Assembly: GCA_036971615.1 (NCBI GenBank)
Contig: JAYKKR010000008.1
Location: forward strand, 496,001 to 560,000
DNA: 64,000 nt
Direction: 5' to 3'
From: Amyloporia xantha
Taxonomy: Eukaryota > Basidiomycota > Agaricomycetes > Polyporales > Adustoporiaceae
Part shown: positions 16,854-58,007 of the stretch, in pieces
How the letters are laid out: the number at the start of each line of letters is the position of its first letter
Numbering within the stretch: the stretch's first letter is position 1
The notes under the pieces: generated by a model
What the model saw: the letters and a program-made list of their open reading frames with translations, nothing else
The model's database searches: none
Told to the model about the DNA's origin: nothing
Made by a program: the position numbers and the translations under genes

Positions 16854-17938
16854 TGATAGGCGCCAAGCCCCTCTGGGCCCCGATAGAGCTCTTTTCGGCA
16901 ATCGCATCCCGCCCGGCACTTCGGCTCAGTCACCCAAGCCTTCGATTTCGCCTTCGACGTCTTTCGAGGCTACGCATGTGACCCCCGACGCTCAGTATCC
17001 TTCGACACTCTTCGACGTCTTCTACCGCTCTCTACGCTTGCTCGAAGCTCGGCGCGGTCGTTACGAGGCCTCGCCCTCAGATCCAGGACCATCTCCCGCA
17101 TTCGGCGTACAATAGTGCCACTCGACGCCGCTCGTCCAACGCGTGCATCGCTTCGTGCCACACCGACGCGTCCGGTCTTTCCCGATTAGGTATCGAACCT
17201 CGCGGCGTGCCTTCGACGACGGATACCGGTCCGAAGTGTCTCGTATGTTTCTCTTCATCTCCGCGTTCGGCATGACGTCACTCTACCGATGGCCTCGATA
17301 CGTGCCACTCGGTGAGGCGGACTCGTGTAGGACAATGCAAAGTCACTCGTACTAGTGTGCCACTCTCGATAGTCGTAGCGTTCCGTTTCGTAGTATAAAA
17401 CATGTCGTATTTCTCTCTCAAATACAAGTTCCTTTTCCCCCTCGAGTTCAGAGCTCATAAGTCGAGTTCGCCCTGCGTCTAAGTCCTCTACTGCGTCACT
17501 TCGTTCTTCGCTGCGTTACTTCGAAACTTCGTCTACTGCGTCCACTCGTCGATACCGTCTCGTCGAACCTTTGATCTTACAATCGACTTCGACTATTGTC
17601 GAAGAACTGCGTTGCGCCTCGAACCGCGTTACAGCTAAGTCCTCCCCCTCGAAGCGTTTCGATTCCTTCTACGTGACATCGAAGAGCTCTATCTGAGCTT
17701 CGATCGTCTCTACCGAGTCCCGCTAACTACCCACAGCCCTCGAGTAGCTTCGACGACGTGTCGAGCTACCTTGTACCGTTCCCTAGCGTTCGTAGCCTTT
17801 TTCGAAGGCGTTTCTCGTGTTCACTCGAACCGCGGGACACCTTGCTGCTAACTCCCCTCTCACTAAGACTATAATCCGTCTCTCTAGTCCCTTTAGGTCG
17901 CACCCAGGTTAGGGGTTAGGGTTTCGTAGGTCGTATCA
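16854..17938 (+). repeat. Gypsy-1 5' LTR
   Basis: This 1085 bp LTR has TGATAGG at the start and TCGTATCA at the end. A promoter-like GTAGTATAAAACATG lies near 17,390. The last 30 bases contain GGTTAGGGGTTAGGG, two telomere-like words. It is repeated at 26,595-27,678. Confidence 0.95.
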
Positions 17939-17942
17939 TTTC

Positions 17943-17960
17943 TGGAGCCCACCGCGAGGG
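17943..17960 (+). other. Gypsy-1 primer-binding site
   Basis: TGGAGCCCACCGCGAGGG starts four bases after the LTR end. It begins with TGG, the complement of a tRNA 3' CCA, as expected. Exactly the same sequence follows the 5' LTR of Gypsy-2 on the other strand, so the two families use the same primer tRNA. I cannot name that tRNA from memory. Confidence 0.75.
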
Positions 17961-18545
17961 GATTTCAGGCAAGAATTCGCCGCTTTCGGGTTTCCGAAAA
18001 CGTCTCCAGTACTCACCCGCTCGCAAGCGCGTGAGGCTGCTAGTCGCAGCGCCAGCGAAAACCTCGACAGCTCCTCTCGAACACTCTCGACTCCCTCTCC
18101 GACAATTCCCGGTAACTTCGACCGCGACGAAGAAGACGAGATCGACCAAGAACTCCAGGACGACTTCGACGAAGAACCGATCCCTTCGACCTCCGAAGAA
18201 CGCACTTCGTCCCCCGAGCTTCTAGGACTCACTACTTCCGACTACGCCACTTCGTCTCCCGATCTCTTCGATCAATCCGGATCTTCGCCCGAACCCGAGG
18301 ATCCCATCTCATCGACTTCGAATCTCGTACTTCCGACTCCGTCTTCTTTTCGCGCCCACGCTCAGCCATCCATCGCATCTTCTTCGCGACTTCCAGTCGT
18401 ACCTACATCCAATCTGGCACCTCCGCCAGCATCTGCACCTTCGAACGCAGCTTCGAACTCCAACCCCGCACCGCTCGCACCAACGAATCCTTCGACTTCT
18501 ACCGCGTCCTCTTCGAACCCAGCTCCTACTTCTAACACTACGAAC

Positions 18546-20834
18546 ATGAGTCAGAACGCGAACCCACCGTTGATGCCCCCGCGCGGTCATTCGACGGCAC
18601 CGAGCTTCGACCCGTCGGAAGTCCGTTCGCTTCGGCGTTACTTCCAGGATCTCGAGGCGTTGTTCGCCCGGTGTCAGATTACCGACAACGCGGCCAAGAA
18701 ACAGTGGGCCATTCGGTACCCTTCGATCGACGTCGCCGACTTGTGGGAAACCATCGAGTCCTTCGTCGACGTAAACAAGAGCTACAACGAATGGAAAGCA
18801 GACGTACGAGCACTCTATCCTGGCGCCGACGACACGCGGAAATGGTCGTTGGCAGATATGGATCAGCTCATCGGAGAACGCGCTCGTATCGGGATTCACA
18901 ACGCGGCAGATCTAGGCTGCTACTACCGCGACTTCATGGCCATTACGAAACATCTCATCGCACAGAACCGTCTCTCTACTATCGAACAAAGCCGCGCATT
19001 CCTTCGAGGGTTCCAGCCAGCGTTGCTCACGCGGCTCGAGACTCGACTCCATCTCAAGCACCCCGATCACTACGCCGACGACCCGTACACCATGGCAGAA
19101 ATTCACGCGGCGGCGACTTTCATTTTACACGGTACTTCGAGCACCCCTACGACAGCGGCTAACCAGCCAATCGCCTCGACATCGAACGCTTCTACCACGG
19201 TGCCCCCCGGGATGATCAAGACCGAAGACATCTCGATGATCATCGAGAGCCTGTCGAAGACGATCGCGACGCTCATCCAGCCAACGGCGCATGCTACGCA
19301 CAACCACGCCCCCGCCCCGAGACAACAAGCCGCCGCTCACGTCCACGTCCACGAGAACGGCGAAACCGAGCAGACATGCCACTACTGCGGCAATCGTGGC
19401 TGCAGGGTAGGCACCTGCGAGTTCGCGGCAATCGACATTCGGGAAGGCAAGTGCAAGCGGAACACCGAAGGCAAGATCGTCCTCCCGAACGGTAGCTTCT
19501 GCCCTCGAACGATCCCTGGTCTCACAATACGAGATCGAATATACGAATGGCATCGAAGAAATCCCGCAGCACCCGCCGCTCCGACAATGCTCTTCGAGAT
19601 CGACGACCGATCGACCGTACAGACGTTCACGCTCAACACCAGCGGAAGGATTGAGGCGCTAGAACGAGAACTCCTCCAGCTTCGGAAGCGAAGGGAGGTC
19701 TTCGACGGCGTCGAGATTCTCCAGCGGAAGAAGCCTACGACGACGGCGGTCCCGAAGAACGCGGAAGCCTCGGGATCGGGTACATCGAAGGAAGCGGCGG
19801 CACCCTCGAGCACTTCAACAAGCACGGCCCCGCCTCCGACAATACCAGCAGCATCACCCGCGCCATCTTCACCATCTACGCAGTCAACTTCGCATCCTAC
19901 TACGACAGCACCACCAGTACATCCCTTCGCCAACGCTCGCGACGCAACCTACGCCCCGCCGAACGTTCGAAACTTCGCAACACCGCCGAAGCCCTCGAAC
20001 GACAGGGGCAAGGAACCTGCGTACAAGACCATCGTCCCTATTATCCAGCCGAAGCTCGCCGAGGAGATCTTTCAGCGTTCGATGAAGTCGCAGTTCGTCA
20101 CGCTGACCCCCGAAGAGCTTCTTTCGATCGCGCCGGACGTTCGAACCAAGTACCGCGACGCCGTCACCCCGAAGCGAGTCTCGACGGAACCCGTCGCGTC
20201 AGCCCACATCATAGAAGTCGCCGAAGACGAGGTGATCTCGATCAACCAGCTTTCGTGTTCGGGCGCGACGCTGGAACCCGGTGCTACGATCGTCCCCGAC
20301 CCCTACGAAACGTACTTGAAGCATGTCCCCCAAGGCGAATATCCCGCAGAATTTACTGTCGCCCGGGATTCGAACGCGATCCGTTCGATCATCGCTCTGA
20401 TCGACAACAAGGAGCAAATCGAGTGCATCGTCGATCCCGGCTCGCAAATCGTCGCAATGTCAGAAGAGATCTGTCTCGGCCTCAACCTCCTCTTCGACCC
20501 GACCATTCAGCTAAACATGCAATCGGCGAACGGCGAGGTAGACCGATCGTTGGGCCTCGTTCGAAACGTTCCTTTCCGTATCGGTGAGATCGTTCTATAC
20601 CTCCAGGCTCACGTTATTCGCAATGCAGCCTACGACATTCTCCTCGGCCGACCCTTCGACGTGCTCACGCAGAGCGTCGTCAAGAACTTCGCCGACGAGA
20701 ACCAGACCATCACGATCTTGTGTCCGAACACCGGCGAAACGGTTACGATCCCGACGTACGCGCGAGGAAGATCGCGAGGCCAGCAGCATCCTTTCGGGTG
20801 TCGCAAGCCGCATTTTCTCGCTTCGAGGAATTGA
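18546..20834 (+). CDS. Gypsy-1 Gag-protease
   Basis: The frame of 762 codons starts at the first ATG of the element's transcript region. The capsid-like part holds a helical RRYFQDLEALF and LYPGAD block (residues 25-120). It is followed by a Cys-rich zinc-knuckle-like motif, CHYCGNRGCRVGTC (near residue 278), a Pro/Ser/Thr-rich linker, and a retropepsin-like domain with the active-site DPGSQIVAMS (about residue 641). Gag packages the RNA into virus-like particles and the protease matures them. The same frame is open and coding-like for about 210 further codons upstream (17,913-18,545) but contains no ATG, see findings. It overlaps pol by 115 bases. Confidence 0.92.
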   Translation: MSQNANPPLMPPRGHSTAPSFDPSEVRSLRRYFQDLEALFARCQITDNAAKKQWAIRYPSIDVADLWETIESFVDVNKSYNEWKADVRALYPGADDTRKWSLADMDQLIGERARIGIHNAADLGCYYRDFMAITKHLIAQNRLSTIEQSRAFLRGFQPALLTRLETRLHLKHPDHYADDPYTMAEIHAAATFILHGTSSTPTTAANQPIASTSNASTTVPPGMIKTEDISMIIESLSKTIATLIQPTAHATHNHAPAPRQQAAAHVHVHENGETEQTCHYCGNRGCRVGTCEFAAIDIREGKCKRNTEGKIVLPNGSFCPRTIPGLTIRDRIYEWHRRNPAAPAAPTMLFEIDDRSTVQTFTLNTSGRIEALERELLQLRKRREVFDGVEILQRKKPTTTAVPKNAEASGSGTSKEAAAPSSTSTSTAPPPTIPAASPAPSSPSTQSTSHPTTTAPPVHPFANARDATYAPPNVRNFATPPKPSNDRGKEPAYKTIVPIIQPKLAEEIFQRSMKSQFVTLTPEELLSIAPDVRTKYRDAVTPKRVSTEPVASAHIIEVAEDEVISINQLSCSGATLEPGATIVPDPYETYLKHVPQGEYPAEFTVARDSNAIRSIIALIDNKEQIECIVDPGSQIVAMSEEICLGLNLLFDPTIQLNMQSANGEVDRSLGLVRNVPFRIGEIVLYLQAHVIRNAAYDILLGRPFDVLTQSVVKNFADENQTITILCPNTGETVTIPTYARGRSRGQQHPFGCRKPHFLASRN

Positions 20835-23800
20835 TTCCCCATGATCAAGGAGAAGCCGCGCTAGTCATCGACTACGATGGGGTAAAGCCAGAAATTTCCT
20901 TCGTCTCGCCGATTAATTCTTCTATTCCGAACGCAGTCTCATCTCTCTATCTCTCCGCATGCACCTCAGTCTCTTCATATTTACAGTCTCTCTACGCCAC
21001 GGACTCTACAGCTTCTAATGCCGCCCCGTCGAACGCTTCGACGTGGGCTTCGACTCTTCTATTCTCAGCTCCGTTCGCTTCGACTCCGCCCGCTCCCGTC
21101 CCGACGAAGTCCCTGTCCCAGTTCTCCAACTCGATTCTCCCCTTTCCTTCGACGACTTCGACTTCGACATCTTCGACGCACAAGATACTCGCCGCAACGA
21201 AGAAGAAGTACAAGCCCGTCGCTCTCAAGACCCGACCCGTCCTTGGTGCCGTCCCCGAACAATTTCGAATACTTCGGGACATCAAGGGCGACCCTCTATC
21301 CATCATGCCTAAGCTCTCGACCGACCCCCCGCCATTCAAACCTACCGGTCGGTACACCCTCGAACGCTTCGAAACCACCGAGAAGCTTCACAATGGCGAT
21401 TTCCTGCTTCCCGACGAACGTCGAGTCCTACACCACTTCATGTGCTTGCACAACGAAGCCTTCGCGTGGACCGACGACGAGCGAGGATGTTTCAAGCCCG
21501 AGTACTTCTCTCCCGTCGACTTCCCCGTCGTTCCGCACACGCCCTGGGTGCAGAAGAATATCCCCATTCCGCCCGGGATCTACAACGAAGTCTGCGCGGT
21601 GATCAAGCGAAAGATCGCCGCCGGAGTCTACGAGCCTTCGAACTCGTCGTATCGATCTCGATGGTTCTGTGTCGTAAAGAAGGACGGCAAATCGCTTCGA
21701 CTCGTTCACTCGCTCGAGCCTCTCAACGCAGTCACAATCCAGCATTCCGGTGTACCGCCGACGCCCGAATATCTCGCAGAACAATTCGGAGGAAGACCAT
21801 GCGGCGGCATGCTCGACCTCTACGTCGGCTACGACGAACGACTCATCGCGGAGTCTTCGAGAAACCTTACGACGTTCCAGACACCCTACGGAGCCATGCG
21901 GCTAGTAACACTTCCGATGGGGTGGACGAACTCGGTCCCCATATTCCACGACGACGTCACCTACATCCTCCAGCCCGAAATCCCGCACGTCACGGTACCC
22001 TACGTCGATGACGTTCCCGTCAAAGGTCCCGAATCAGACTACGACGACGAACGGCTCCCTTCGAACCACGGCATTCGACGATTCGTGTGGGAGCACTTCG
22101 AGAATATGAACCGCGTCGTCACTCGAATGCGCTACGCAGGAGGAACCTTCTCCGGAGTAAAGAGTGTCCTCATCGCTCGAGAAATCATGGTGGTGGGACA
22201 TCGCTGCACTCCTCAAGGACGCCTTCCCGACGATTCTCGAGTCGCTTCGATACGCAATTGGGGTCCCTGCGCAACACTTTCCGACGTTCGAGCGTTCCTC
22301 GGAACCATCGGCGTCGTTCGTATCTTCATCCGCAACTTCGCTCACCGCGCCGACGCGCTCGTACGCCTCACGAGGAAGGACGTCGAGTTCGAGTTCGGTC
22401 CCGAGCAAATCGCGGCGCAGGAAGATCTCAAGGATGCTCTCCTCTCGTCCCCCGCACTTCGAGCAATCAATTACGATTCCCCCTCCCCCGTCATACTAGC
22501 AGTCGACACCTCGTTCATCGCCGTCGGATATCACCTGTGCCAATGCGACGAAGCCAACACCCGCATTCGATACTACAACCGTTTCGGTTCGATTACGTTA
22601 AACGACCGCGAACGTCGATTCTCGCAGCCCAAACTCGAGATCTACGGCCTCTTTCGTGCGCTTCGATCCCTTCGACTGTACCTCATCGGCGTTCGAAATT
22701 TAATCGTCGAAGTCGATGCGCGGTATATCAAGGGTATGCTAAAGAACCCCGACATAGCACCCAGCGCGAGTATCAACCGCTGGATCGTTTCGATTCTCAC
22801 ATTCCACTTCACGCTAGTCCACGTCCCTGGTACGATGCACGGCCCCGACGGTCTCTCTCGACGAACGGCTCAGCCCGGCGATATCATCGAAGACGAGGTC
22901 GACGACGAGTTCGATGATTGGATCGACCAGATGCACTCGTTCGTTCACCAGATTCAGCCCCTCCCGCCCGTCCCTTCGCTTGCCATCTTAACCAATGACA
23001 GAGCCGAGGACGGCTCAGATTTCAATAAGGAGGAGGATAGCTACGAGCTAGTGCCTCGATCGGAGCAAGCGCAACTCGCCGACGCGAAGCTCGACGACGT
23101 GCTCGAGTTCCATCGAACGTTAGCGAAGCCCGACGACATCTCCGACAGCGTCTACGAAGGATTCATCAAGTATTGCATGCAGTTTTTCCTCGATAACGAC
23201 ACCCTCTGGCGCAAAGACAGCCACGGCGCGCACAAGCTAGTCGTCAAGCCCGGCGATCGACTTCGAATTCTTCGAGAATGCCACGACCGCACCGCGCATC
23301 GAGGAATCTACGCGACTCGAGCCTTCGTCAACGAACGATTCTGGTGGCCGTTCCATTACGCCGACATCGCGTGGTTCGTTCGATCATGCCACATCTGCCA
23401 GTCTCGCCAAGTTCGACAAATTCTTATCCCTCCAACCGTCGCAGTCCCAGCCCCGATCTTCGCGAAAATTCACATCGACACCATGCACATGCCTGCTTCC
23501 GGCGGATACAAGTACTTGGTACAAGGTAGATGCTCGCTCACGACTTACCCCGAGTTCCGAATGCTTCGAAAAGAGACAGCGAAAGCCCTCGCCGACTGGA
23601 TCTTCGAAGACATCCTCTGTCGATGGGGCGCGCTCAGCGAGATCGTCACCGACAACGGTACGGCGTTCATCAAGGCGGCCGACTACCTTTCGAAGAAGTA
23701 CCACATCAATCACATTCGAATCAGTGGGTACAATTCGAGGGCGAACGGTCTCGTCGAACGTCCGCATTTCAGCACGCGGCAAGCTCTCTTCAAGACAGCC

Positions 23801-24451
23801 GACGGAGATGAGAAGAAATGGTCCCAAGCTGCGTATTTTGTCTTTTGGTCCGAGCGCATCACGACTCGTCGACGCATGGGCTGCTCACCCTATTTCGCTG
23901 TTACGGGCACCCATCCGCTCATTCCCCTCGACATCGTCGAAGCAACGTATCTTCAACCACCGCCAACTTCGATCCTTTCGACAACCGATCTCATCGCCCG
24001 AAGAGCCATCGCGCTCCAGAAACGCGTCGAGCAAGTCACCGAACTCCACTCGAAGGTCTACGAAGCACGTCGGACAGCAGCAATTCGCTTCGAAAAGGAG
24101 CACGAACACTCGATCCAGGATTTCGACTTCAAGCGCGGAGCCCTAGTACTCATACGCAACACGAAGATCGAGAAGTCCCTCAACCGCAAGATGCGCCCGC
24201 GATACCTAGGCCCCCTCATCGTTGTCTCGCGCAACAAGGGCGGCGCGTACATCGTATGCGAGCTCGACGGTACAGTCCTCGATCGACCCATCGCGGCATT
24301 CCGCGTCATTCCGTACCTCGCTCGCAAATCCATCCCAATTCCCGAAGATCTCGAAGATGTCTCGACAGAGCGCCTTCGAGAACTCGAACTATCGAATTCT
24401 CTCGGCGACGACGACGATGAAGTCGAAGAAGCCGAAGAACACGACGAATAG
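20720..24451 (+). CDS. Gypsy-1 Pol (RT, RNase H, integrase)
   Basis: The frame lies -1 relative to gag and has no stop for 1243 codons. Reverse transcriptase spans about residues 280-480 with YVDD near residue 427. RNase H follows with VDTS near 592. Integrase begins with an HHCC zinc domain (near 853-895, ending CHIC) and has the catalytic triad in HIDTMHM (about 920), TDNGT (about 977) and LVERP (about 1012). A C-terminal RPRYLGPLIVV block resembles the integrase tail module of Gypsy elements. All key residues are present, so the element may be active. Translation probably depends on -1 frameshifting from gag; the start shown is simply the beginning of the open frame. Confidence 0.93.
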   Translation: MSEHRRNGYDPDVRARKIARPAASFRVSQAAFSRFEELIPHDQGEAALVIDYDGVKPEISFVSPINSSIPNAVSSLYLSACTSVSSYLQSLYATDSTASNAAPSNASTWASTLLFSAPFASTPPAPVPTKSLSQFSNSILPFPSTTSTSTSSTHKILAATKKKYKPVALKTRPVLGAVPEQFRILRDIKGDPLSIMPKLSTDPPPFKPTGRYTLERFETTEKLHNGDFLLPDERRVLHHFMCLHNEAFAWTDDERGCFKPEYFSPVDFPVVPHTPWVQKNIPIPPGIYNEVCAVIKRKIAAGVYEPSNSSYRSRWFCVVKKDGKSLRLVHSLEPLNAVTIQHSGVPPTPEYLAEQFGGRPCGGMLDLYVGYDERLIAESSRNLTTFQTPYGAMRLVTLPMGWTNSVPIFHDDVTYILQPEIPHVTVPYVDDVPVKGPESDYDDERLPSNHGIRRFVWEHFENMNRVVTRMRYAGGTFSGVKSVLIAREIMVVGHRCTPQGRLPDDSRVASIRNWGPCATLSDVRAFLGTIGVVRIFIRNFAHRADALVRLTRKDVEFEFGPEQIAAQEDLKDALLSSPALRAINYDSPSPVILAVDTSFIAVGYHLCQCDEANTRIRYYNRFGSITLNDRERRFSQPKLEIYGLFRALRSLRLYLIGVRNLIVEVDARYIKGMLKNPDIAPSASINRWIVSILTFHFTLVHVPGTMHGPDGLSRRTAQPGDIIEDEVDDEFDDWIDQMHSFVHQIQPLPPVPSLAILTNDRAEDGSDFNKEEDSYELVPRSEQAQLADAKLDDVLEFHRTLAKPDDISDSVYEGFIKYCMQFFLDNDTLWRKDSHGAHKLVVKPGDRLRILRECHDRTAHRGIYATRAFVNERFWWPFHYADIAWFVRSCHICQSRQVRQILIPPTVAVPAPIFAKIHIDTMHMPASGGYKYLVQGRCSLTTYPEFRMLRKETAKALADWIFEDILCRWGALSEIVTDNGTAFIKAADYLSKKYHINHIRISGYNSRANGLVERPHFSTRQALFKTADGDEKKWSQAAYFVFWSERITTRRRMGCSPYFAVTGTHPLIPLDIVEATYLQPPPTSILSTTDLIARRAIALQKRVEQVTELHSKVYEARRTAAIRFEKEHEHSIQDFDFKRGALVLIRNTKIEKSLNRKMRPRYLGPLIVVSRNKGGAYIVCELDGTVLDRPIAAFRVIPYLARKSIPIPEDLEDVSTERLRELELSNSLGDDDDEVEEAEEHDE
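23019..23035 (+). other. Candidate central polypurine tract in Gypsy-1 pol
   Basis: ATTTCAATAAGGAGGAG is identical over 17 bases to the segment that ends at the 3' polypurine tract (26,577-26,593), and similarity continues upstream (GCCGAGGACGGC versus ACCGAGGACGGT). It lies between RNase H and integrase. In Ty1 and lentiviruses an internal copy of the tract primes a second plus strand. The function is inferred. Confidence 0.6.
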
Positions 24452-24917
24452 AGGTTCTCCCCTTTTCTTACCTGTACAACACGATGCGTACTTTCCTCTC
24501 TCCGTTTCTGCTCTCATGTTACGCTATATGCTTGATTTTCTCCTACGCTCTAGATCTCCACTTGTACGATTACATTCGATTCAACTCGAAAGTCGCGATA
24601 TCGTTCGACGTTCCTCGAACGCTTCGAATCGACCGTTGCGCGGAGGCTCACCTTAGAAGAGTCCTCCTAGGCTGTGATGACAAACTGAGCCTATATTTTC
24701 ATTGTCTTTATCTTTCTTCCTCTACGAACGCTTCGATTTTATCTTCTATTACCTTCGATCATGTTATTTTTGCTTCGATCACGCTTATTTTCGTTTCTTT
24801 CCTTCCATTCCCACTAGGTTTCGTCTAGGCCATGAAGGCCACATTTTTATTTTCCCGTACTCGACACGACATTCTACGATCCTACAACTACCTACAAGAT
24901 ACGAGCTGCGACATCGC

Positions 24918-26348
24918 CTACTCATCATCCGAGACTGGCTCGAAGTCCGCCCCTTTCAGCGCGGCTTCCTCCATCTGTTGAAGGTGGGTGTCAGCGTCTC
25001 GCAGCACCTTCATGCGCGTTTCCAGCAATGCCCGTTCCTCCCGAATCACTCGAACGAGCGCACGCGAACGAGGAGTCAAGTCCATGGAGTCGAGATCGTC
25101 CGTCTCGAGCCCGAGTCGGGTGCCACCGTCGACCGGCAGCGACAGCTTCGGAAGCGGCACTCGGCGACGCTTCGAACTCGTCGACCCGGCGGTCGAAGGA
25201 CCCGGCGACGGAGGTCGAGCTACGAATACAATACGATTAGTCGAAATTTTACCTCCTCCATCGAAGACTTACCGCGTTTCTTCGAGCCCCCACCGTTGCG
25301 AGCCTTTTTCGTCTTTCCGAGGACGTTTACCCCGTCGTAGTAACATCCCTGGACTGTCTGCGTGCACTTCTCGCACGAGACCGACCCGTCGACCCACACG
25401 CACTCGACGGGCGCGCTACGGTATGCGACGCAGCGGTCGCACTACGGGCGAAGTATCAGCACACGAACAGCGGACAGGGACGACCGAGCTTACCTTCTGT
25501 CCTCCTTGCCGCTTCGCAAGGGCGATCGCGGCCCTCTCAGCCTCGACCATTGGCAGCGCCCGCTCGGCGGCCTTGGGAGTCTTCTACGAGAAGTAACGAA
25601 ATCAGTCGCGAGTCGAAGCAACACAGAATTGGACTTACGACCGGATCATCGAAGATCTCGATCACATCATCGTCGTCGGCAGCACGACTCTTGCCCTTCG
25701 AATCACTCGGAGCAGCGCCGACGATGGCAGACTCGTCGACTAACCCTTCGGCGGCGGCGATATTCGCGACCTCGGCGTCGGCGGCCTCTTGCGCAAGACG
25801 TTCGTCCTCTTCGGCCTGCTTTCGGCGGTCCTCGGCCTCTTGCTTGCGTCGATCGTCCTCCTGCTTTTGACGGCGCTCGTCCTCGAGACGGCGATCTTCG
25901 GCGGCTTTGGCACGCTTGAGGTTCTCTTCGGCGCGACGAGCCTCTTCAGCGGCGAGGCGTTTCTCCTCCTCGGCGCGACGTTGGACCTCGGCATCGATAG
26001 CGTCGGCCAGCTCCGACCAGTCCCCGCGAGCCCATGCGAGCCACGAGTCCGGTGCCAACCGAGCAAGGTGACTCACGATTGCCGCGACGCGCACCTCGAT
26101 CTCTTCGTCGCGAATCGCACCGAGCGACTTTCGATAAGTCAGCTTCGATCAACCCGTGTTAGTCCAAATATCACAGGAGAAACCGGTTCACTTACCAGCT
26201 GCGCCGAGAGATCCTGCGCCCATCCTTCGACGTCTTCGATGGCCGCATCGGGAGTCGGAGGTGCGTCGAGCACAGCGGACAGAGCGGCAAGTCGGCGAGT
26301 TGCCAGCGAGGTAGCGGCGGCGGGAGTAGCAGAGCGCGAAGCAGACAT
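24918..26348 (-). CDS. Spliced antisense gene of Gypsy-1; coiled-coil, Zn2Cys6-like protein
   Basis: Five exons on the strand opposite gag-pol: 26196-26348, 25639-26142, 25494-25583, 25273-25441 and 24918-25219. The four introns of 53, 55, 52 and 53 bp all have GTAAG donors and AG acceptors, and the joined frame of 405 codons has no stop. The product has an N-terminal helical part, a WLAWARGDWSELADA motif, a highly charged coiled coil (about residues 95-175), an acidic DDDDVIEIFDD stretch, and a cysteine cluster C-x2-C-x9-C-x8-C-x2-C-x6-C near the fourth exon, close to the fungal Zn2Cys6 pattern. A TATA motif (GGATATAAGC, minus strand) lies near 26,437-26,446, about 90 bases upstream of the ATG. 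DNA binding is an inference; no function is known to me. Confidence 0.85.
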
Positions 26349-26436
26349 GATGCAAGCAGGGTTTATCGAAGAAGTTCACGAAAATGGCGAGGAGGCGACG
26401 AGGAGATGGTGGACTGAGGAAAATGAGGCTAAGTCC

Positions 26437-26447
26437 ACCCAGCTTAT
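26437..26447 (-). promoter_or_regulatory. TATA box of the Gypsy-1 antisense gene
   Basis: On the minus strand GGATATAAGC lies about 90 bases before the ATG at 26,348, between the 3' polypurine tract and the gene. This placement would let the gene be transcribed independently of the LTR promoter. It is inferred from motif and spacing. Confidence 0.5.
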
Positions 26448-26584
26448 ATCCCCTTTTCGACCAGCGTTTAGCGCCGACCACGAGGCGTTCGAAACCGACA
26501 CGGGTTGCCATGCCGCTTCGATCCACTTACGATCATCACGCTTCTCGCATCACGTGGAGGACCGAGGACGGTCCAAATTTCAAT

Positions 26585-26594
26585 AAGGAGGAGA
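26585..26594 (+). other. Gypsy-1 3' polypurine tract
   Basis: AAGGAGGAGA lies immediately before the 3' LTR, the required place for the plus-strand primer. It is preceded by CCGAGGACGGTC and AATTT, which recur before the polypurine tract of Gypsy-2. Confidence 0.85.
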
Positions 26595-27678
26595 TGATAG
26601 GCGCCAAGCCCCTCTGGGCCCCGATAGAGCTCTTTTCGGCAATCGCATCCCGCCCGGCACTTCGGCTCAGTCACCCAAGCCTTCGATTTCGCCTTCGACG
26701 TCTTTCGAGGCTACGCATGTGACCCCCGACGCTCAGTATCCTTCGACACTCTTCGACGTCTTCTACCGCTCTCTACGCTTGCTCGAAGCTCGGCGCGGTC
26801 GTTACGAGGCCTCGCCCTCAGATCCAGGACCATCTCCCGCATTCGGCGTACAATAGTGCCACTCGACGCCGCTCGTCCAACGCGTGCATCGCTTCGTGCC
26901 ACACCGACGCGTCCGGTCTTTCCCGATTAGGTATCGAACCTCGCGGCGTGCCTTCGACGACGGATACCGGTCCGAAGTGTCTCGTATGTTTCTCTTCATC
27001 TCCGCGTTCGGCATGACGTCACTCTACCGATGGCCTCGATACGTGCCACTCGGTGAGGCGGACTCGTGTAGGACAATGCAAAGTCACTCGTACTAGTGTG
27101 CCACTCTCGATAGTCGTAGCGTTCCGTTTCGTAGTATAAAACATGTCGTATTTCTCTCTCAAATACAAGTTCCTTTTCCCCCTCGAGTTCAGAGCTCATA
27201 AGTCGAGTTCGCCCTGCGTCTAAGTCCTCTACTGCGTCACTTCGTTCTTCGCTGCGTTACTTCGAAACTTCGTCTACTGCGTCCACTCGTCGATACCGTC
27301 TCGTCGAACCTTTGATCTTACAATCGACTTCGACTATTGTCGAAGAACTGCGTTGCGCCTCGAACCGCGTTACAGCTAAGTCCTCCCCCTCGAAGCGTTT
27401 CGATTCCTTCTACGTGACATCGAAGAGCTCTATCGAGCTTCGATCGTCTCTACCGAGTCCCGCTAACTACCCACAGCCCTCGAGTAGCTTCGACGACGTG
27501 TCGAGCTACCTTGTACCGTTCCCTAGCGTTCGTAGCCTTTTTCGAAGGCGTTTCTCGTGTTCACTCGAACCGCGGGACACCTTGCTGCTAACTCCCCTCT
27601 CACTAAGACTATAATCCGTCTCTCTAGTCCCTTTAGGTCGCACCCAGGTTAGGGGTTAGGGTTTCGTAGGTCGTATCA
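26595..27678 (+). repeat. Gypsy-1 3' LTR
   Basis: This 1084 bp copy matches the 5' LTR apart from one missing T. It is followed by GCGC, the target duplication, and then by the broken recombinase gene. Confidence 0.95.
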
Positions 27679-53635: not shown

Positions 53636-56600
53636 ATGTCATCCATCGACTCTCATCCGCGCTTCAAGCCGCTTTCGAACGGCAATTATCCGCAGTGGAG
53701 GGGAGAGATGCGAGCATATCTGATGAAGATGGGCTACTGGAGGCTTGTGAGCGGTGTGGAGAGTCGTCCGCCTGTGGAGGAGGACATAGAGCGCAGGGAA
53801 TGGGACAAGATAGAGTCCAAGGCTGCTGGTGAGATCTTCCTGAACGTCTCACCGGACCAGCGCATCCATTTCAGTGGGTTTGAGGAGGATCCTGTGCGTA
53901 TGTGGAGTGCATTGGAGGCTGCCCATGTCGTTCGTCGTCCGGGTGCACGCTTCAACGCGTACGAATCCCTCTTGACGATCTCCAAGGACGAGGGGAGTCT
54001 TTGCAGTCTCTCACGAACCGCATCGAGGAGGCTATGCTCACTTGCCAGAACCTCCGTCCTCCCTCCTTCTCTCTCGCTGACTTGGACAATGAGCTTCAAG
54101 CCATGGCGATGATTCGTGCGCTTCGCGCGAGCAGTATGCGAGCTTTACCTCTGCTCTCATCATGATGCTCCCAGAGAAGCTCGACAAGTCCAAGGTCATC
54201 GAAGCGTTCCAAACAGAGGAGCTCAATCGCATGGCACGTCCCTCTCTTACCCTTCCTTCGTCTTCATCGTCCTCCGTCGCTCTTGCCGCTACTTCGTCCC
54301 CTTCGACTTCGATCTCTTCAGCCAGCGCGAACGCTGCATCTGCGGATGCTACCTGCGACTTCTGCGGTCGCAAGGGTCACACCCAGAGTGTTTGCTTCAA
54401 GTTTGCGAAGGCCAAGGAGAAGGCTCGTCAACCGCGCAAGCGTCTGGACCAGGCGAATGCTACAGAGTCAGCTGGCAATGCAAGTCTTCGTTCTGTCGAT
54501 CCCTCCGATCCTCTTTCGCCTCTTCAGACCGACGCTAACATGGATTGGAACGCAGACTCAGGTGCTACAGCTCACATGACTCCTCATCGACACTGGCTTC
54601 GCGACTACTCCCCGCATCGTGTCGCTATACGCCTCGCAGACAATCAGGTTGTCTATTCTGCTGGGGTTGGAACTGTGGTCTTTTCGCCGATTGTGGGAGG
54701 TAGGGTGGTCAAGAACGTCGAGTTTACCCGTGTTCTACATGTCCCTGCCCTTCGTAACAATCTCCTGTCTGTCCTTTTCTTAACACGACGTTGCCAATTC
54801 ACTGTGCGCATTGGACGTGAAAGGATGGACTTCTCAAAGGGAGGTCGAACGCTCTTCTGCGCCCGCATCGACGACTCGAACACTGCGCTTTTAGCCGGTC
54901 ATACTGTCGCTCTTACAGAGTATGCAAAGCTGAGCTCCACTCTTCCTCTCGATCTTTCGCTCTGGCATCGTCGTCTCGCGCATCGTCACATCGACGGAGT
55001 GAAGCGTTTGCTGTCTCAGGATCTTGTCACTGGTCTGACACTCGACTCTAAGGCTCCCTCAGACCCTGTCTGCGAGCCCTGTCTTGCTGGGAAGATGCAT
55101 GCTAATCCTTTCCCTCCGTCGTCTCATCGTGCCAGCAAACCGCTCGAACTCGTTCACTCTGACGTTCATGGTCCCCTGCCTGTCCAAACCCACTCTGGCT
55201 ATCGCTACTGGGTTACATTCATCGACGACTTCTCTCGCTTCCGCACTGTCTACTTAATGAAGACAAAGGATCAGGTCTTCGAAATGTTCAGACATTACAA
55301 GGCGTGGGCGGAGAATCAGACGGACTGCAGGATCAAAGCGTTGCGAGACGACAAGGGAGGTGAATACATGTCCACTGCCTTCCTTTCCTTCACCACAGAG
55401 CACGGCATTGAACGACAACACTCCACGCGCAATCGACCGCAGCAGAACGGTGTTGCAGAGCGCACCAATCGAATTCTAGGCGATGGTATCAGTTCTATGC
55501 TTTCTGAGTCTGGTCTTCCTCCCTCTTTCTGGGGAGAGGCTCTGTCTACTCTCGTGCATGTTCTGAACCGCTGTGCCTCCTCCGTGCTACCAGACGCTAC
55601 GCCCTTTGAGATGTGGTACAAGCGCAAGCCGGACGTTAGCCATCTCCGCGTTTGGGGATGCACTGCCTATGTCCACGTCCAGAAGGACAAGCGGACGAGT
55701 CTTGGCGCCCATATGGAGAAGTGCGTCTTCATTGGTTATCCTGATGGTGTTAAAGGTTGGAGATTCTACAATCCTACGACGAAGCGGATCATTCTTTCAG
55801 AGCGTGCTGATTTCGATGAGCGCTACTTTCCTGGTCTGAAGCAATCGACAGCCCCTCTTGCTTCTCCTCCTACTTCTAACTCTGCTCCTCCACCTCCACC
55901 GCCACCTCCTGATGCTGCTCCGCCGCCTCCACCACCCTCTCCTCCTCCTGCACCTGCTCCTCTGCCGGTCGCTGATCCTGTGCCTGTGCCCGCTGTTGCG
56001 CCTGCGCCACCTCTTGAGGGGGAGTTACCAGATCCTCCTGCTCCTCCAGAGCTGGATCCTATCCAAGATGTGCCTGCAGACGCTCCTTTTCCTCCTCCAG
56101 TCCCAGAACTTCCTGTCGATGATCGTCCCATCGCTCTTCGACGCGAGCGTCGAGCGAAGCGTCCAGTGCAAGATTGGTCTGTTCCATGGCATCCGTATTC
56201 CCGTCCTGCTACTCGTTCACGTGCTCCTGCTCCGGTTCCCCCGCCTCCACCTCCGCCGTCGCCTCCGCCTCCACCGCCTCCTGCTGTTCCACTGTCGCCT
56301 CCTCCTCCAGTCGAAGCTGAGTGGAGAGAACCTCCTCCCGCTGTTCCAGACAGCGATGATGATGATCTCCCAGCACTCGCAGAGGATTTTGAGGACAATG
56401 ACAGCGATGACGAGGATGCCGAAGAGGCTGCCCACTATGCAGAGTCTGAGCCTGCGACTTATGCGGAAGCCATGAGACGCCCGGACGCAGACAAGTGGCG
56501 CGCCGCTATTCAGGAGGAATACGATGCACAGATTGAGAATGGCACTTGGGAAGTCGTCGATCTACCTCCTGACCGCAAGGCTATTGGCTGTAAGTGGGTC

Positions 56601-58007
56601 TTTAAGATCAAGCGCAATGCGGACGGCTCCATCGAACGCTACAAGGCTAGACTTGTTGCCCAAGGCTTTTCTCAGCGCCCTGGCTACGATTTCGTCGAAA
56701 CCTTCGCTCCCACCATTCGCATGGCCAGCATTCGAGCCATTCTTGCCACTGCTGCCATCGAGGACCTCCACATACGCTCCATTGACATCTCCCATGCTTT
56801 CCTGAATGGTGAGATGGATGCGGATGTCTACATGCGTCAACCGGAGGGCTTTCAGAATGGTAACAAGCGAGTTGCTTTACATCTGCGCAAGCCTATCTAC
56901 GGGCTAAAGCAAGCTGGTCGACGCTGGAACAAGAAGCTGCATGCTACGCTGGTCAAGATGGGTTTCAAGCGCATTTCCTCAGACGCTGGAGTGTACGTAT
57001 ACGAGCGTGATAACATTCGCATCATTGTCCCTATCTATGTCGATGATATCACTGCTGTTTCCTCCTCCCAGTCTGCGCTTGACAACTTCGTCGAAGAGCT
57101 AGCTAGCCACTTCAAGCTTCGTGATTTGGGCGCAACGTCATATCTTCTGGGAATCGAGATCACTCGGGATCGTCCAACTCGCACTCTTGCTCTGTCTCAG
57201 CGACAATACATCATCGACGTCCTCGAGCGCTTCAACCACAGCGAGTGCAGTACGGTTTCCACTCCTATGACTCCCGGTTTGATCCTATCCTCTTCCATGT
57301 CCCCCAAAACGCCCGAAGAAGTAGCTAGCATGAGCAACATCCCTTACCTGCAGGCTGTAGGTGCCCTGCAGTATCTTTCCTCCGCTACTCGTCCAGACAT
57401 CTCCTATGCTGTTGGCTGTCTTGCGCGCTTCAACCACAATCCTGGTGAGCAGCATTGGAAAGCGGTCAAGCATCTCTTCCGTTACTTGCAGGGGACAAAG
57501 GATCTCAAACTCACTTACCGCCCTGACCCTTCGACTACAGAGCCCTTTGTGACGTTCACAGATGCATCGCATGGCGATAATCTGGAGAATGGACGTTCCA
57601 CAAGTGGCTACCTGGTTCGCATGGGTACAGGCGCTGTCAACTGGAGTAGCAAGCTGCAATCCATCGTCACTCTTTCCACCACGGAGTCGGAGTACGTTGC
57701 TGCAGTCGAGGCCGGAAGGGACATCAAGTGGATGCGCAATCTTCTCTCTGAGATTGGCTATGGGTATGATCCTCCCTCTACCCTCTGTATCGACAATCAG
57801 TCCGCACTCACTGTGTCGAAGAATCCGGAGCATCACGGTCGACTCAAACACCTCGACCTCCGCTTCTACTGGCTACGTGATGAGGTTGAGGCTGGGTACA
57901 TCAAACCTATCTATGTCTCCACTCATGAGATGCCTGCAGATTTGCTCACCAAGGCTCTGGCAAAGCCTCAGGTCGAGCACTTGCGGCGCATGATGGGTTT
58001 GGAGTGA
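53636..58007 (+). CDS. Copia Gag-Pol polyprotein (two one-base frameshifts in gag)
   Basis: Gag starts at the ATG 53,636 (YPQWRGEMRAYL, UBN2-type). The frame changes at a G run at 53,992-53,995 and again near 54,124, each one base too short, and then stays open from 54,162 to 58,007. In order: zinc knuckle CDFCGRKGHTQSVC, protease ADSGATAHM, integrase zinc domain (LWHRRLAHRH ... CEPCLAGK), integrase core (HSDVHGPL, DDKGGEY, GVAERTNR), a Pro-rich linker, RT with FVETFAPT, DISHAFLNGE and the catalytic IYVDDI, RNase H with FTDASHGDN and TTESEYVAA. All catalytic residues are present. The two shifts may be sequencing errors. Confidence 0.92.

What the first reader, a model, noticed from the sequence alone, without database searches (positions are those of the whole stretch)
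24918..26348. Gypsy-1 carries a spliced antisense gene for a Zn2Cys6-like coiled-coil protein
Five exons and four introns of 52-55 bp with consensus borders give an unbroken frame of 405 codons on the strand opposite to gag-pol, in an element whose LTRs are almost identical. Chance cannot easily produce four in-phase introns. The cysteine pattern and the coiled coil suggest a dimeric DNA-binding regulator of the element or the host. The layout recalls the spliced antisense bZIP gene of deltaretroviruses, but I know of no description for fungal Gypsy elements.
Basis: partly seen in the sequence, partly recalled or inferred. Interest (0 to 1): 0.9.

Follow-up and report, generated by a model that had tools for sequence, protein, structure and literature searches.

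The report
Swappable antisense gene in fungal retrotransposon
A jumping gene in a genome that is likely a basidiomycete fungus's carries on its opposite strand a five-exon gene whose four introns sit at the same places in all 20 copies examined and whose protein sequence is held by purifying selection, while the gene has apparently been swapped between otherwise very similar copies like a cassette; it is predicted to make a nuclear protein that would regulate the element.

Summary
The window's Gypsy element (16854-27678; LTRs identical apart from one 1-base gap) carries a 405-codon, five-exon gene antisense to gag-pol at 26348-24918. The genome holds at least 22 such genes. In all 20 examined, the four introns sit at identical codon positions and phases, although their lengths vary freely modulo 3. 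dN/dS is 0.17. Homologues are annotated in Postia (Rhodonia) placenta.

Against the window's copy, LTRs, gag and pol are mostly 90-98% identical, but the antisense gene is mostly below 85%, with sharp edges just downstream of a conserved TATA box and in the 3' UTR. One copy has gag dS 0.002 but antisense dS 1.9. N- and C-terminal parts have conflicting trees, so parts have been exchanged.

Six cysteines are invariant, but no Zn2Cys6 profile matches, and the 'coiled coil' looks more like a charged single helix. Antisense genes between pol and the 3' LTR are known (plant Grande and Retand, fungal Boty brtn), so this is a new variant of a known kind. Transcription and function are untested.

The parts
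16854..17938 (+). 5' LTR (1085 bp)
   Evidence: local alignment with 26595-27678, 1084/1084 identities, one 1-base gap; GCGC on both sides of the element
18546..20834 (+). gag ORF with aspartyl protease (762 aa)
   Evidence: Pfam gag-asp_proteas and Asp_protease_2 above cut-off
20720..24451 (+). pol ORF (1243 aa), RT-RNase H and integrase zinc domain
   Evidence: Pfam RT_RNaseH, RT_RNaseH_2, Integrase_H2C2
24700..26405 (-). hypervariable antisense cassette (approximate edges): mean pairwise diversity about 0.26-0.33 in exons and UTRs, 0.41-0.53 in introns
26424..26594 (-). conserved antisense promoter region (diversity 0.030 over 19 copies)
26442..26451 (-). TATA-like box GGATATAAGC, present in 20 of 20 copies
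26196..26348 (-). antisense exon 1 (start ATG)
26143..26195 (-). intron 1 (53 bp, phase 0)
25639..26142 (-). antisense exon 2 (N-terminal helices and long charged helix)
   Evidence: helices from the model of a Postia homologue
25584..25638 (-). intron 2 (55 bp, phase 0)
25494..25583 (-). antisense exon 3
25442..25493 (-). intron 3 (52 bp, phase 0)
25273..25441 (-). antisense exon 4, begins with the first cysteine of the cluster
25343..25441 (-). six-cysteine cluster C-x2-C-x9-C-x8-C-x2-C-x6-C
   Evidence: all six cysteines in 20 of 20 copies
25220..25272 (-). intron 4 (53 bp, phase 1)
24918..25219 (-). antisense exon 5 (basic stretch, C-terminal helix, stop TAG)
26582..26594 (+). polypurine tract AATAAGGAGGAGA next to the 3' LTR
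26595..27678 (+). 3' LTR (1084 bp)

Best explanation
This Gypsy retrotransposon carries, between pol and its 3' LTR and on the opposite strand, a five-exon gene under purifying selection that is likely transcribed from its own conserved TATA promoter, predicted to make a nuclear zinc-cluster-like protein that would regulate the element, and apparently exchanged between copies as a hypervariable cassette. Shown here: the exon-intron structure and its conservation in 20 copies; dN/dS 0.17; the LTR and promoter of this element family next to the gene in all 20; a diversity island that starts 20-40 nt after the TATA box and ends in the 3' UTR; conflicting trees for the N- and C-terminal parts. Inferred: because the genomic RNA is the sense strand, the antisense introns are not removed during retrotransposition, which is why the gene can keep introns. 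Also inferred: co-packaged element RNAs recombine during reverse transcription, and high homology outside the cassette and low homology inside would pile breakpoints at its edges. Predicted, untested: the protein enters the nucleus (basic stretches KTKK, KKR, KRRR), binds DNA or chromatin through the cysteine cluster, and uses its fast-changing N- and C-terminal helical parts to contact host or element proteins; selection for new partner specificities (host counter-adaptation or rival copies) would maintain the old gene lineages.
For: Gene reality: 80 of 80 introns conserved; lengths in all residue classes modulo 3; 153 pairs, mean dN 0.213, dS 1.232; codon positions 0.19/0.16/0.48. Promoter. 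Element membership: 3' LTR and promoter-region matches at 17 of 17; pol on the opposite strand at 15 of 17; a match running from the LTR through the promoter into the gene for L040 and L041. Cassette: backbone bins 85-100%, mostly 90-98%; of the 84 copy-by-bin values wholly inside the gene, 72 are 85% or below, range 60-95; medians against the window: pol dS 0.233, LTR distance 0.074, gene dS 1.075; L025 gag dS 0.002 over 721 codons, pol 0.137, gene 1.926; sharp edges. Mosaic: (W+L011 a clade in residues 1-104, 99/95, rejected in 250-392, p-AU 7e-6; L011+L023 a clade in 250-392, 100/99, rejected in 1-104, p 9e-60; L020-L025 together in 1-104 with 88/92, rejected in 250-392, p 6e-59). Age: L024 and L025 proteins are 91% identical to the best of nine Postia proteins tried, 64% to the window's. 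Nuclear or DNA-binding role: analogy with maize Grande GENE23 (nuclear) and Retand TRP28 (predicted DNA binding), passages of PMC7264820 and PMC11963269.
Against: No RNA evidence at all. No Pfam family above cut-off and no PDB match for the cysteine cluster; the nine PDB hits of the whole profile are weak (E 0.21 or more) and none is labelled a zinc-cluster factor. The AlphaFold model of a Postia homologue is poor (mean pLDDT 56.9, pTM 0.28; about 52-62 over the cluster). If the protein bound the element's own LTR with varying specificity, the LTRs should co-vary, but they are conserved. A CCG-N4-CGG palindrome in the antisense promoter is not enriched in the window (27 against 21.4 expected; 13 of 100 shuffles reach it) and recurs beside a second polypurine tract in pol, so it is no operator evidence. 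NG86 dS values near or above 1 are saturated and rough. dN/dS shows constraint, not diversifying selection, so the reason for the diversity is inferred. Two cross-tests of conflict between the trees did not reach significance (p 0.10 and 0.19). Named homologues were found in one other species only.
Confidence: 0.55

Rival explanations
1. Immunity-type cassette: the protein represses the element (or close relatives) and each variant represses only its own kind, so a new variant escapes resident repression, as with phage immunity regions (analogy recalled).
For: Sharp-edged divergent cassette on a near-identical backbone and several old classes coexisting in one genome.
Against: LTRs and antisense promoter, the likely operators, hardly vary (LTR p-distance median 0.074, promoter diversity 0.030), so specificity would have to lie in protein contacts.
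Confidence: 0.2
2. The protein works in the particle or pre-integration complex (Gag partner, nuclear import of cDNA), not in transcription.
For: Basic stretches and charged helices suit an adaptor; plant accessory ORFs have been proposed to play a part like retroviral accessory proteins, in a passage that discusses nuclear import (PMC7264820).
Against: Gag hardly varies where measured (dN 0.001-0.016 against the window in the eight copies with 147 or more gag codons aligned), so a co-varying Gag partner is not seen.
Confidence: 0.15
3. Only the antisense RNA matters (silencing or interference with gag-pol RNA); the reading frame is incidental.
For: Antisense transcripts of other elements and retroviruses can act as RNAs (PMC7264820, PMC10186651 passages).
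Against: dN/dS 0.17, codon-position pattern, codon-sized indels, and frame kept across introns of varying length.
Confidence: 0.05
4. A host gene captured once or repeatedly as a passenger.
For: It has host-like introns, which a capture could explain.
Against: 20 of 22 places examined have the family's LTR and promoter beside the gene and the two others have family pol hits beside them; no free-standing homologue was found in this genome; constraint persists across copies.
Confidence: 0.05
5. The real coding strand is the sense strand and the antisense frame is its shadow.
For: Sense ORFs exist here in the window (25789-26586 and others).
Against: None of the three sense frames is free of stops over exon 2 in all 20 copies, and their codon phase would be broken by the length changes of the antisense introns.
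Confidence: 0.01

Closest known systems
Antisense additional ORFs between pol and 3' LTR of plant Ty3/Gypsy elements (aORF-3R: maize Grande gene23, rice RIRE2, Silene Retand/TRP28)
   Same: Same position and orientation; in most or all copies; gene23 is transcribed from a promoter in its upstream region and its product is nuclear; TRP28 predicted to bind DNA (passages of PMC7264820, PMC11963269)
   Different: Here five exons with four introns; no TRP28 or other Pfam domain; the review describes aORF-3R conservation as similar to that of other element proteins, whereas here the gene is far more divergent than gag-pol and mosaic
brtn, antisense gene of Boty (Gypsy) in Botrytis cinerea and Sclerotinia
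   Same: Fungal Gypsy element with an antisense gene between pol and 3' LTR (as cited in PMC7264820 and PMC8365987; Zhao et al. 2011 itself not held, not read)
   Different: Whether brtn has introns or a cysteine cluster, and whether it is hypervariable, I could not read; no sequence comparison was made
HBZ of HTLV-1 and related deltaretroviral antisense genes
   Same: Antisense nuclear regulator gene at the 3' end of a retroelement; spliced mRNA (recalled)
   Different: Retroviral antisense genes are driven from the 3' LTR (PMC10186651, abstract and passages) and HBZ is a bZIP protein (recalled); here the conserved TATA-like box is internal, there are four introns in the coding part and no bZIP match
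Zn2Cys6 (Gal4-type) fungal transcription factors
   Same: Six invariant cysteines in C-x2-C ... C-x2-C-x6-C order; basic stretches nearby
   Different: C2-C3 spacing 8-9 instead of 6 (recalled canonical value); no profile or structure match

Membership tests
aORF-3R (antisense accessory ORF between pol and 3' LTR) | Position between pol and 3' LTR, antisense to gag-pol | tested here: met
   in copies (pol on the opposite strand found at 15 of 17; L011 and L020 lack it in the fetched stretch; 3' LTR match at 17 of 17, partial in L013 and L023)
aORF-3R (antisense accessory ORF between pol and 3' LTR) | Present in all or most copies of the family, not a single transduction | tested here: met
   22 places; of the family pol places without a gene hit, two (C55:1904k, C55:1496k) have unrelated sequence where the gene would be and one pol fragment (C55:1511k) was not fetched
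aORF-3R (antisense accessory ORF between pol and 3' LTR) | Transcribed antisense from its own promoter | not testable with these tools
   Only a conserved TATA region
Zn2Cys6 transcription factors | Six cysteines with the Gal4-type spacing | tested here: inconclusive
   Six cysteines in 20 of 20; spacing 2-9-8-2-6 in 18 and 2-8-8-2-6 in 2; the C2-C3 gap departs from the recalled canonical 6
Zn2Cys6 transcription factors | Match to the family profile or a solved member | tested here: not met
   Pfam; PDB
Dimeric coiled-coil DNA-binding protein | Heptad pattern in the long helix | tested here: not met
   LIVMF at best a/d register 0.14, p 0.91 against shuffles; charge-pair-rich
HBZ-like antisense bZIP gene | Antisense transcript started in the 3' LTR | not testable with these tools
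   The conserved TATA-like box is at 26442-26451, outside the LTR
HBZ-like antisense bZIP gene | bZIP domain | tested here: not met
   No Pfam family above cut-off and no bZIP among the matches at E<=1

The most novel reading that the evidence does not exclude
A Gypsy family keeps a pool of ancient, trans-specific variants of an antisense, intron-bearing regulator gene and trades them between near-identical backbones as a cassette bounded by the gene's own transcription start and 3' end. It is a retrotransposon counterpart of phage immunity or retroviral env swapping, perhaps with the unspliced antisense RNA itself serving as the template that carries the cassette into another copy during plus-strand synthesis (a polypurine tract copy lies upstream in pol).
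Probability: 0.25. Interest if true: 0.88.

Novelty: new variant of a known kind. Interest (0 to 1): 0.72.

Why it matters
Antisense accessory genes of LTR retrotransposons are known but unexplained. This family offers a natural experiment: many copies in one genome, very similar backbones, conserved promoters, and clearly distinct, strongly constrained variants of the gene with recombinant intermediates. If the diversity is kept by conflict with the host or among copies, it would be a retrotransposon arms-race locus that can be tested by comparing variants in reporter assays. It also illustrates cleanly how a retroelement can carry spliceosomal introns: on the antisense strand.

Tried and rejected
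Chance splice model: rejected by intron conservation. Sense-strand coding: rejected by stops. Zn2Cys6 membership by profile or structure: no support. Coiled coil in the long helix: no heptads. A Leu3-like (recalled) CCG-N4-CGG operator in the antisense promoter: not enriched, palindrome p 0.047 for loop 4 and 0.3 for loops 0-10, and shared with a second polypurine tract in pol; dropped. Gene-less members of the family: two pol hits without a gene hit have unrelated sequence, in L043 a strongly repetitive one, where the gene would be. A SUMO-interaction-like motif (recalled) before the cluster recurs in varying forms and is weaker in the Postia proteins printed; not pursued. Fold search was not run because the model was poor. 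Literature: eight searches were answered. Their listings were capped in part (for example 20 of 602 papers and 15 of 235). No title or abstract start listed reports a spliced or hypervariable antisense gene in a fungal Gypsy element, but the brtn paper and most subscription papers are not held.

Full report
Anatomy. The element spans 16854-27678. Its LTRs (1085 and 1084 bp) are identical over 1084 aligned bases with one 1-base gap and are flanked by GCGC on both sides, so the insertion is recent. gag with a protease is at 18546-20834 and pol with RT-RNase H and integrase domains at 20720-24451. The antisense gene starts at ATG 26348 and ends at the TAG at 24918. It has introns of 53, 55, 52 and 53 bp in phases 0, 0, 0 and 1, and 405 codons.

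Is it real? A DNA search of the window's own genome (46.8 Mb, 60 contigs) found 23 matching stretches, and a protein search found 86 matches that I group into 22 places, a lower bound. I fetched 19 of the 21 places outside the window. A splice-aware protein-to-DNA alignment, which could have put introns of 40-130 bp anywhere, found the same four introns at the same codon and phase in 20 of 20. The aligner favours GT-AG, so the border consensus is partly built in; position, phase and frame are not. Each intron occurs in lengths of all three residue classes modulo 3, but exon indels are codon-sized, 178 against 4 frameshifts. Intron interiors are hardly more alike than shuffled ones (mean identity 0.74-0.81 against 0.73), whereas exons are constrained: 153 pairs of 18 copies, broken ones included, give mean dN 0.213 and dS 1.232, ratio 0.173. 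By segment the ratio runs from 0.115 (residues 105-195) to 0.316 (1-52). Differences by codon position are 0.19, 0.16 and 0.48. 13 of 20 copies have exactly four modelled introns and no stop or frameshift.

It belongs to the element. At 17 of 17 copies a 3' LTR 88-97% identical to the window's (partial in L013 and L023) and the promoter region lie upstream of the gene. At 15 of 17 the pol frame follows on the opposite strand (mostly 96-99% identical; single pieces 90-91% in L015, L019 and L024); at L011 and L020 it is missing from the fetched stretch. For L040 and L041 one match runs from the LTR through the promoter into the gene. The two C6 places not fetched have family pol hits beside them. 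Family pol places without a gene hit are C55:1904k and C55:1496k, where unrelated sequence follows the end of pol or the gene's 3' UTR, and a fragment at C55:1511k that I did not fetch. I found no free-standing copy of the gene.

A hypervariable cassette. Against the window, LTR, gag and pol bins of 250 bp are mostly 90-98% identical (extremes 85 and 100). The full gag comparison rests on seven copies (L012, L013, L016, L017, L021, L023, L025); 5' pieces fetched for L011, L014 and L024 gave no match. Of 84 copy-by-bin values wholly inside the antisense gene, 72 are 85% or below (range 60-95). Synonymous divergence against the window has a median of 0.233 in pol (the values for L011 and L020 rest on 11 codons) and 1.075 in the gene; LTR distance is 0.074. 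L025 has gag dS 0.002 over 721 codons, pol 0.137 over 764, and antisense gene 1.926 over 392, which is hard to produce by mutation on a shared backbone. In an alignment of 19 copies (L019 left out), mean pairwise diversity is 0.030 in the promoter region, 0.305 in the 5' UTR, 0.26-0.33 in exons, 0.41-0.53 in introns, 0.304 in the 3' UTR and 0.127 at 24474-24698 (0.04-0.11 next to the edge). The change falls between about 26423 and 26400 on one side, 20-40 nt after the TATA box, and between 24700 and 24699 on the other. So the variable part coincides with the presumed antisense transcript. The promoter is nearly invariant, with GGATATAAGC in 20 of 20 copies.

A mosaic. By protein identity, residues 1-104 fall into classes: window and L011; L020-L025; L009, L010 and L012-L019; L040 and L041. 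Residues 306-392 fall into other sets: the window with L009, L010 and L012-L019; L021, L022, L024 and L025; L011 with L023; L020 with L040 and L041. DNA trees of residues 1-104 and 250-392 agree with this. W+L011 is a clade in the first (99/95) and rejected in the second (p-AU 7e-6). L011+L023 is a clade in the second (100/99) and rejected in the first (9e-60). L020-L025 group in the first with weaker support (88/92) and are rejected in the second (6e-59). Two other cross-tests did not reach significance: in the first part, W with the ten others of its C class (p 0.10) and L020+L040+L041 (p 0.19). These groups were chosen, which weakens the formal p values, though the three rejections are extreme. 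L024 and L025 proteins are 91% identical to the best of nine Postia proteins tried, against 64% to the window's protein, so the classes appear older than the species or have moved between species. That the window's species is not Postia itself is inferred from the lack of closer hits.

The protein. Six cysteines are present in 20 of 20 copies; 59 of 110 fetched Postia proteins show the 2-9-8-2-6 spacing and 51 show no such cluster (truncated or mis-modelled ones not sorted out). Pfam and PDB give nothing for the cluster. All 103 homologues are named Postia placenta or Rhodonia placenta (synonyms, recalled); four visibly bear a UniRef name of the Zn(2)-C6 type. A narrower search (64 proteins) and a profile search (54 proteins) found the same species only; two of the three searches scored only the best 8,000 or so candidates. 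The AlphaFold model of homologue P0003 with 28 relatives gives N-terminal helices, one helix at 92-173 with pLDDT mostly 80-95, low confidence in the cluster, and a C-terminal helix at 347-386. The window's long helix lacks heptads and is rich in opposite charges four residues apart, fitting a charged single helix better than a coiled coil.

Known kinds. [quoted passage not shown] maize gene23 is nuclear and has its own promoter. PMC11963269 (passages) finds TRP28 antisense ORFs in 97% of Retand clusters. PMC8365987 and PMC4227169 (passages) mention brtn. PMC3248453 (passages), a survey of fungal LTR elements, has no occurrence of 'antisense'. HBZ: abstract and passages of PMC10186651. The brtn paper itself is not held. 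In the listings of eight literature searches I saw no report of a multi-intron or cassette-like antisense gene in a fungal Gypsy element.

Verdict. The gene is real with high confidence (my estimate above 0.95 that it is a coding gene with these introns under selection). Exchange between copies is well supported. The regulatory role, the zinc and DNA binding and the reason for the diversity are inference.

Noticed in passing
window 23001-23036: A second polypurine-tract-like copy inside pol (ATTTCAATAAGGAGGAG context, as at 26582-26594). Both are preceded by a 6-bp palindrome with loop AGGA whose arms differ in a compensating way (GAGCCG/CGGCTC against GGACCG/CGGTCC), suggesting a hairpin; a possible central polypurine tract.
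   Followed up: partly
G000 C6:291554-312331: Three antisense-gene copies about 9.7 kb apart on one strand, with pol hits between them: looks like a tandem array of elements; only the first gene was fetched (L040).
   Followed up: partly
window 54162-58007: A long Copia-type polyprotein ORF (1281 aa; RVT_2, rve, gag pre-integrase domains).
   Followed up: no
L043 1-1600: Strongly repetitive tandem coding-like sequence next to a truncated element of this family, open in several frames.
   Followed up: no
antisense protein, just before the cysteine cluster (window about 25680-25640, minus strand): An acidic motif like a SUMO-interaction motif (DDDDVIEIFDD in the window, DDEVIELSDD in L020-L025, DDVQLLDG in L040) recurs in several copies.
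   Followed up: no
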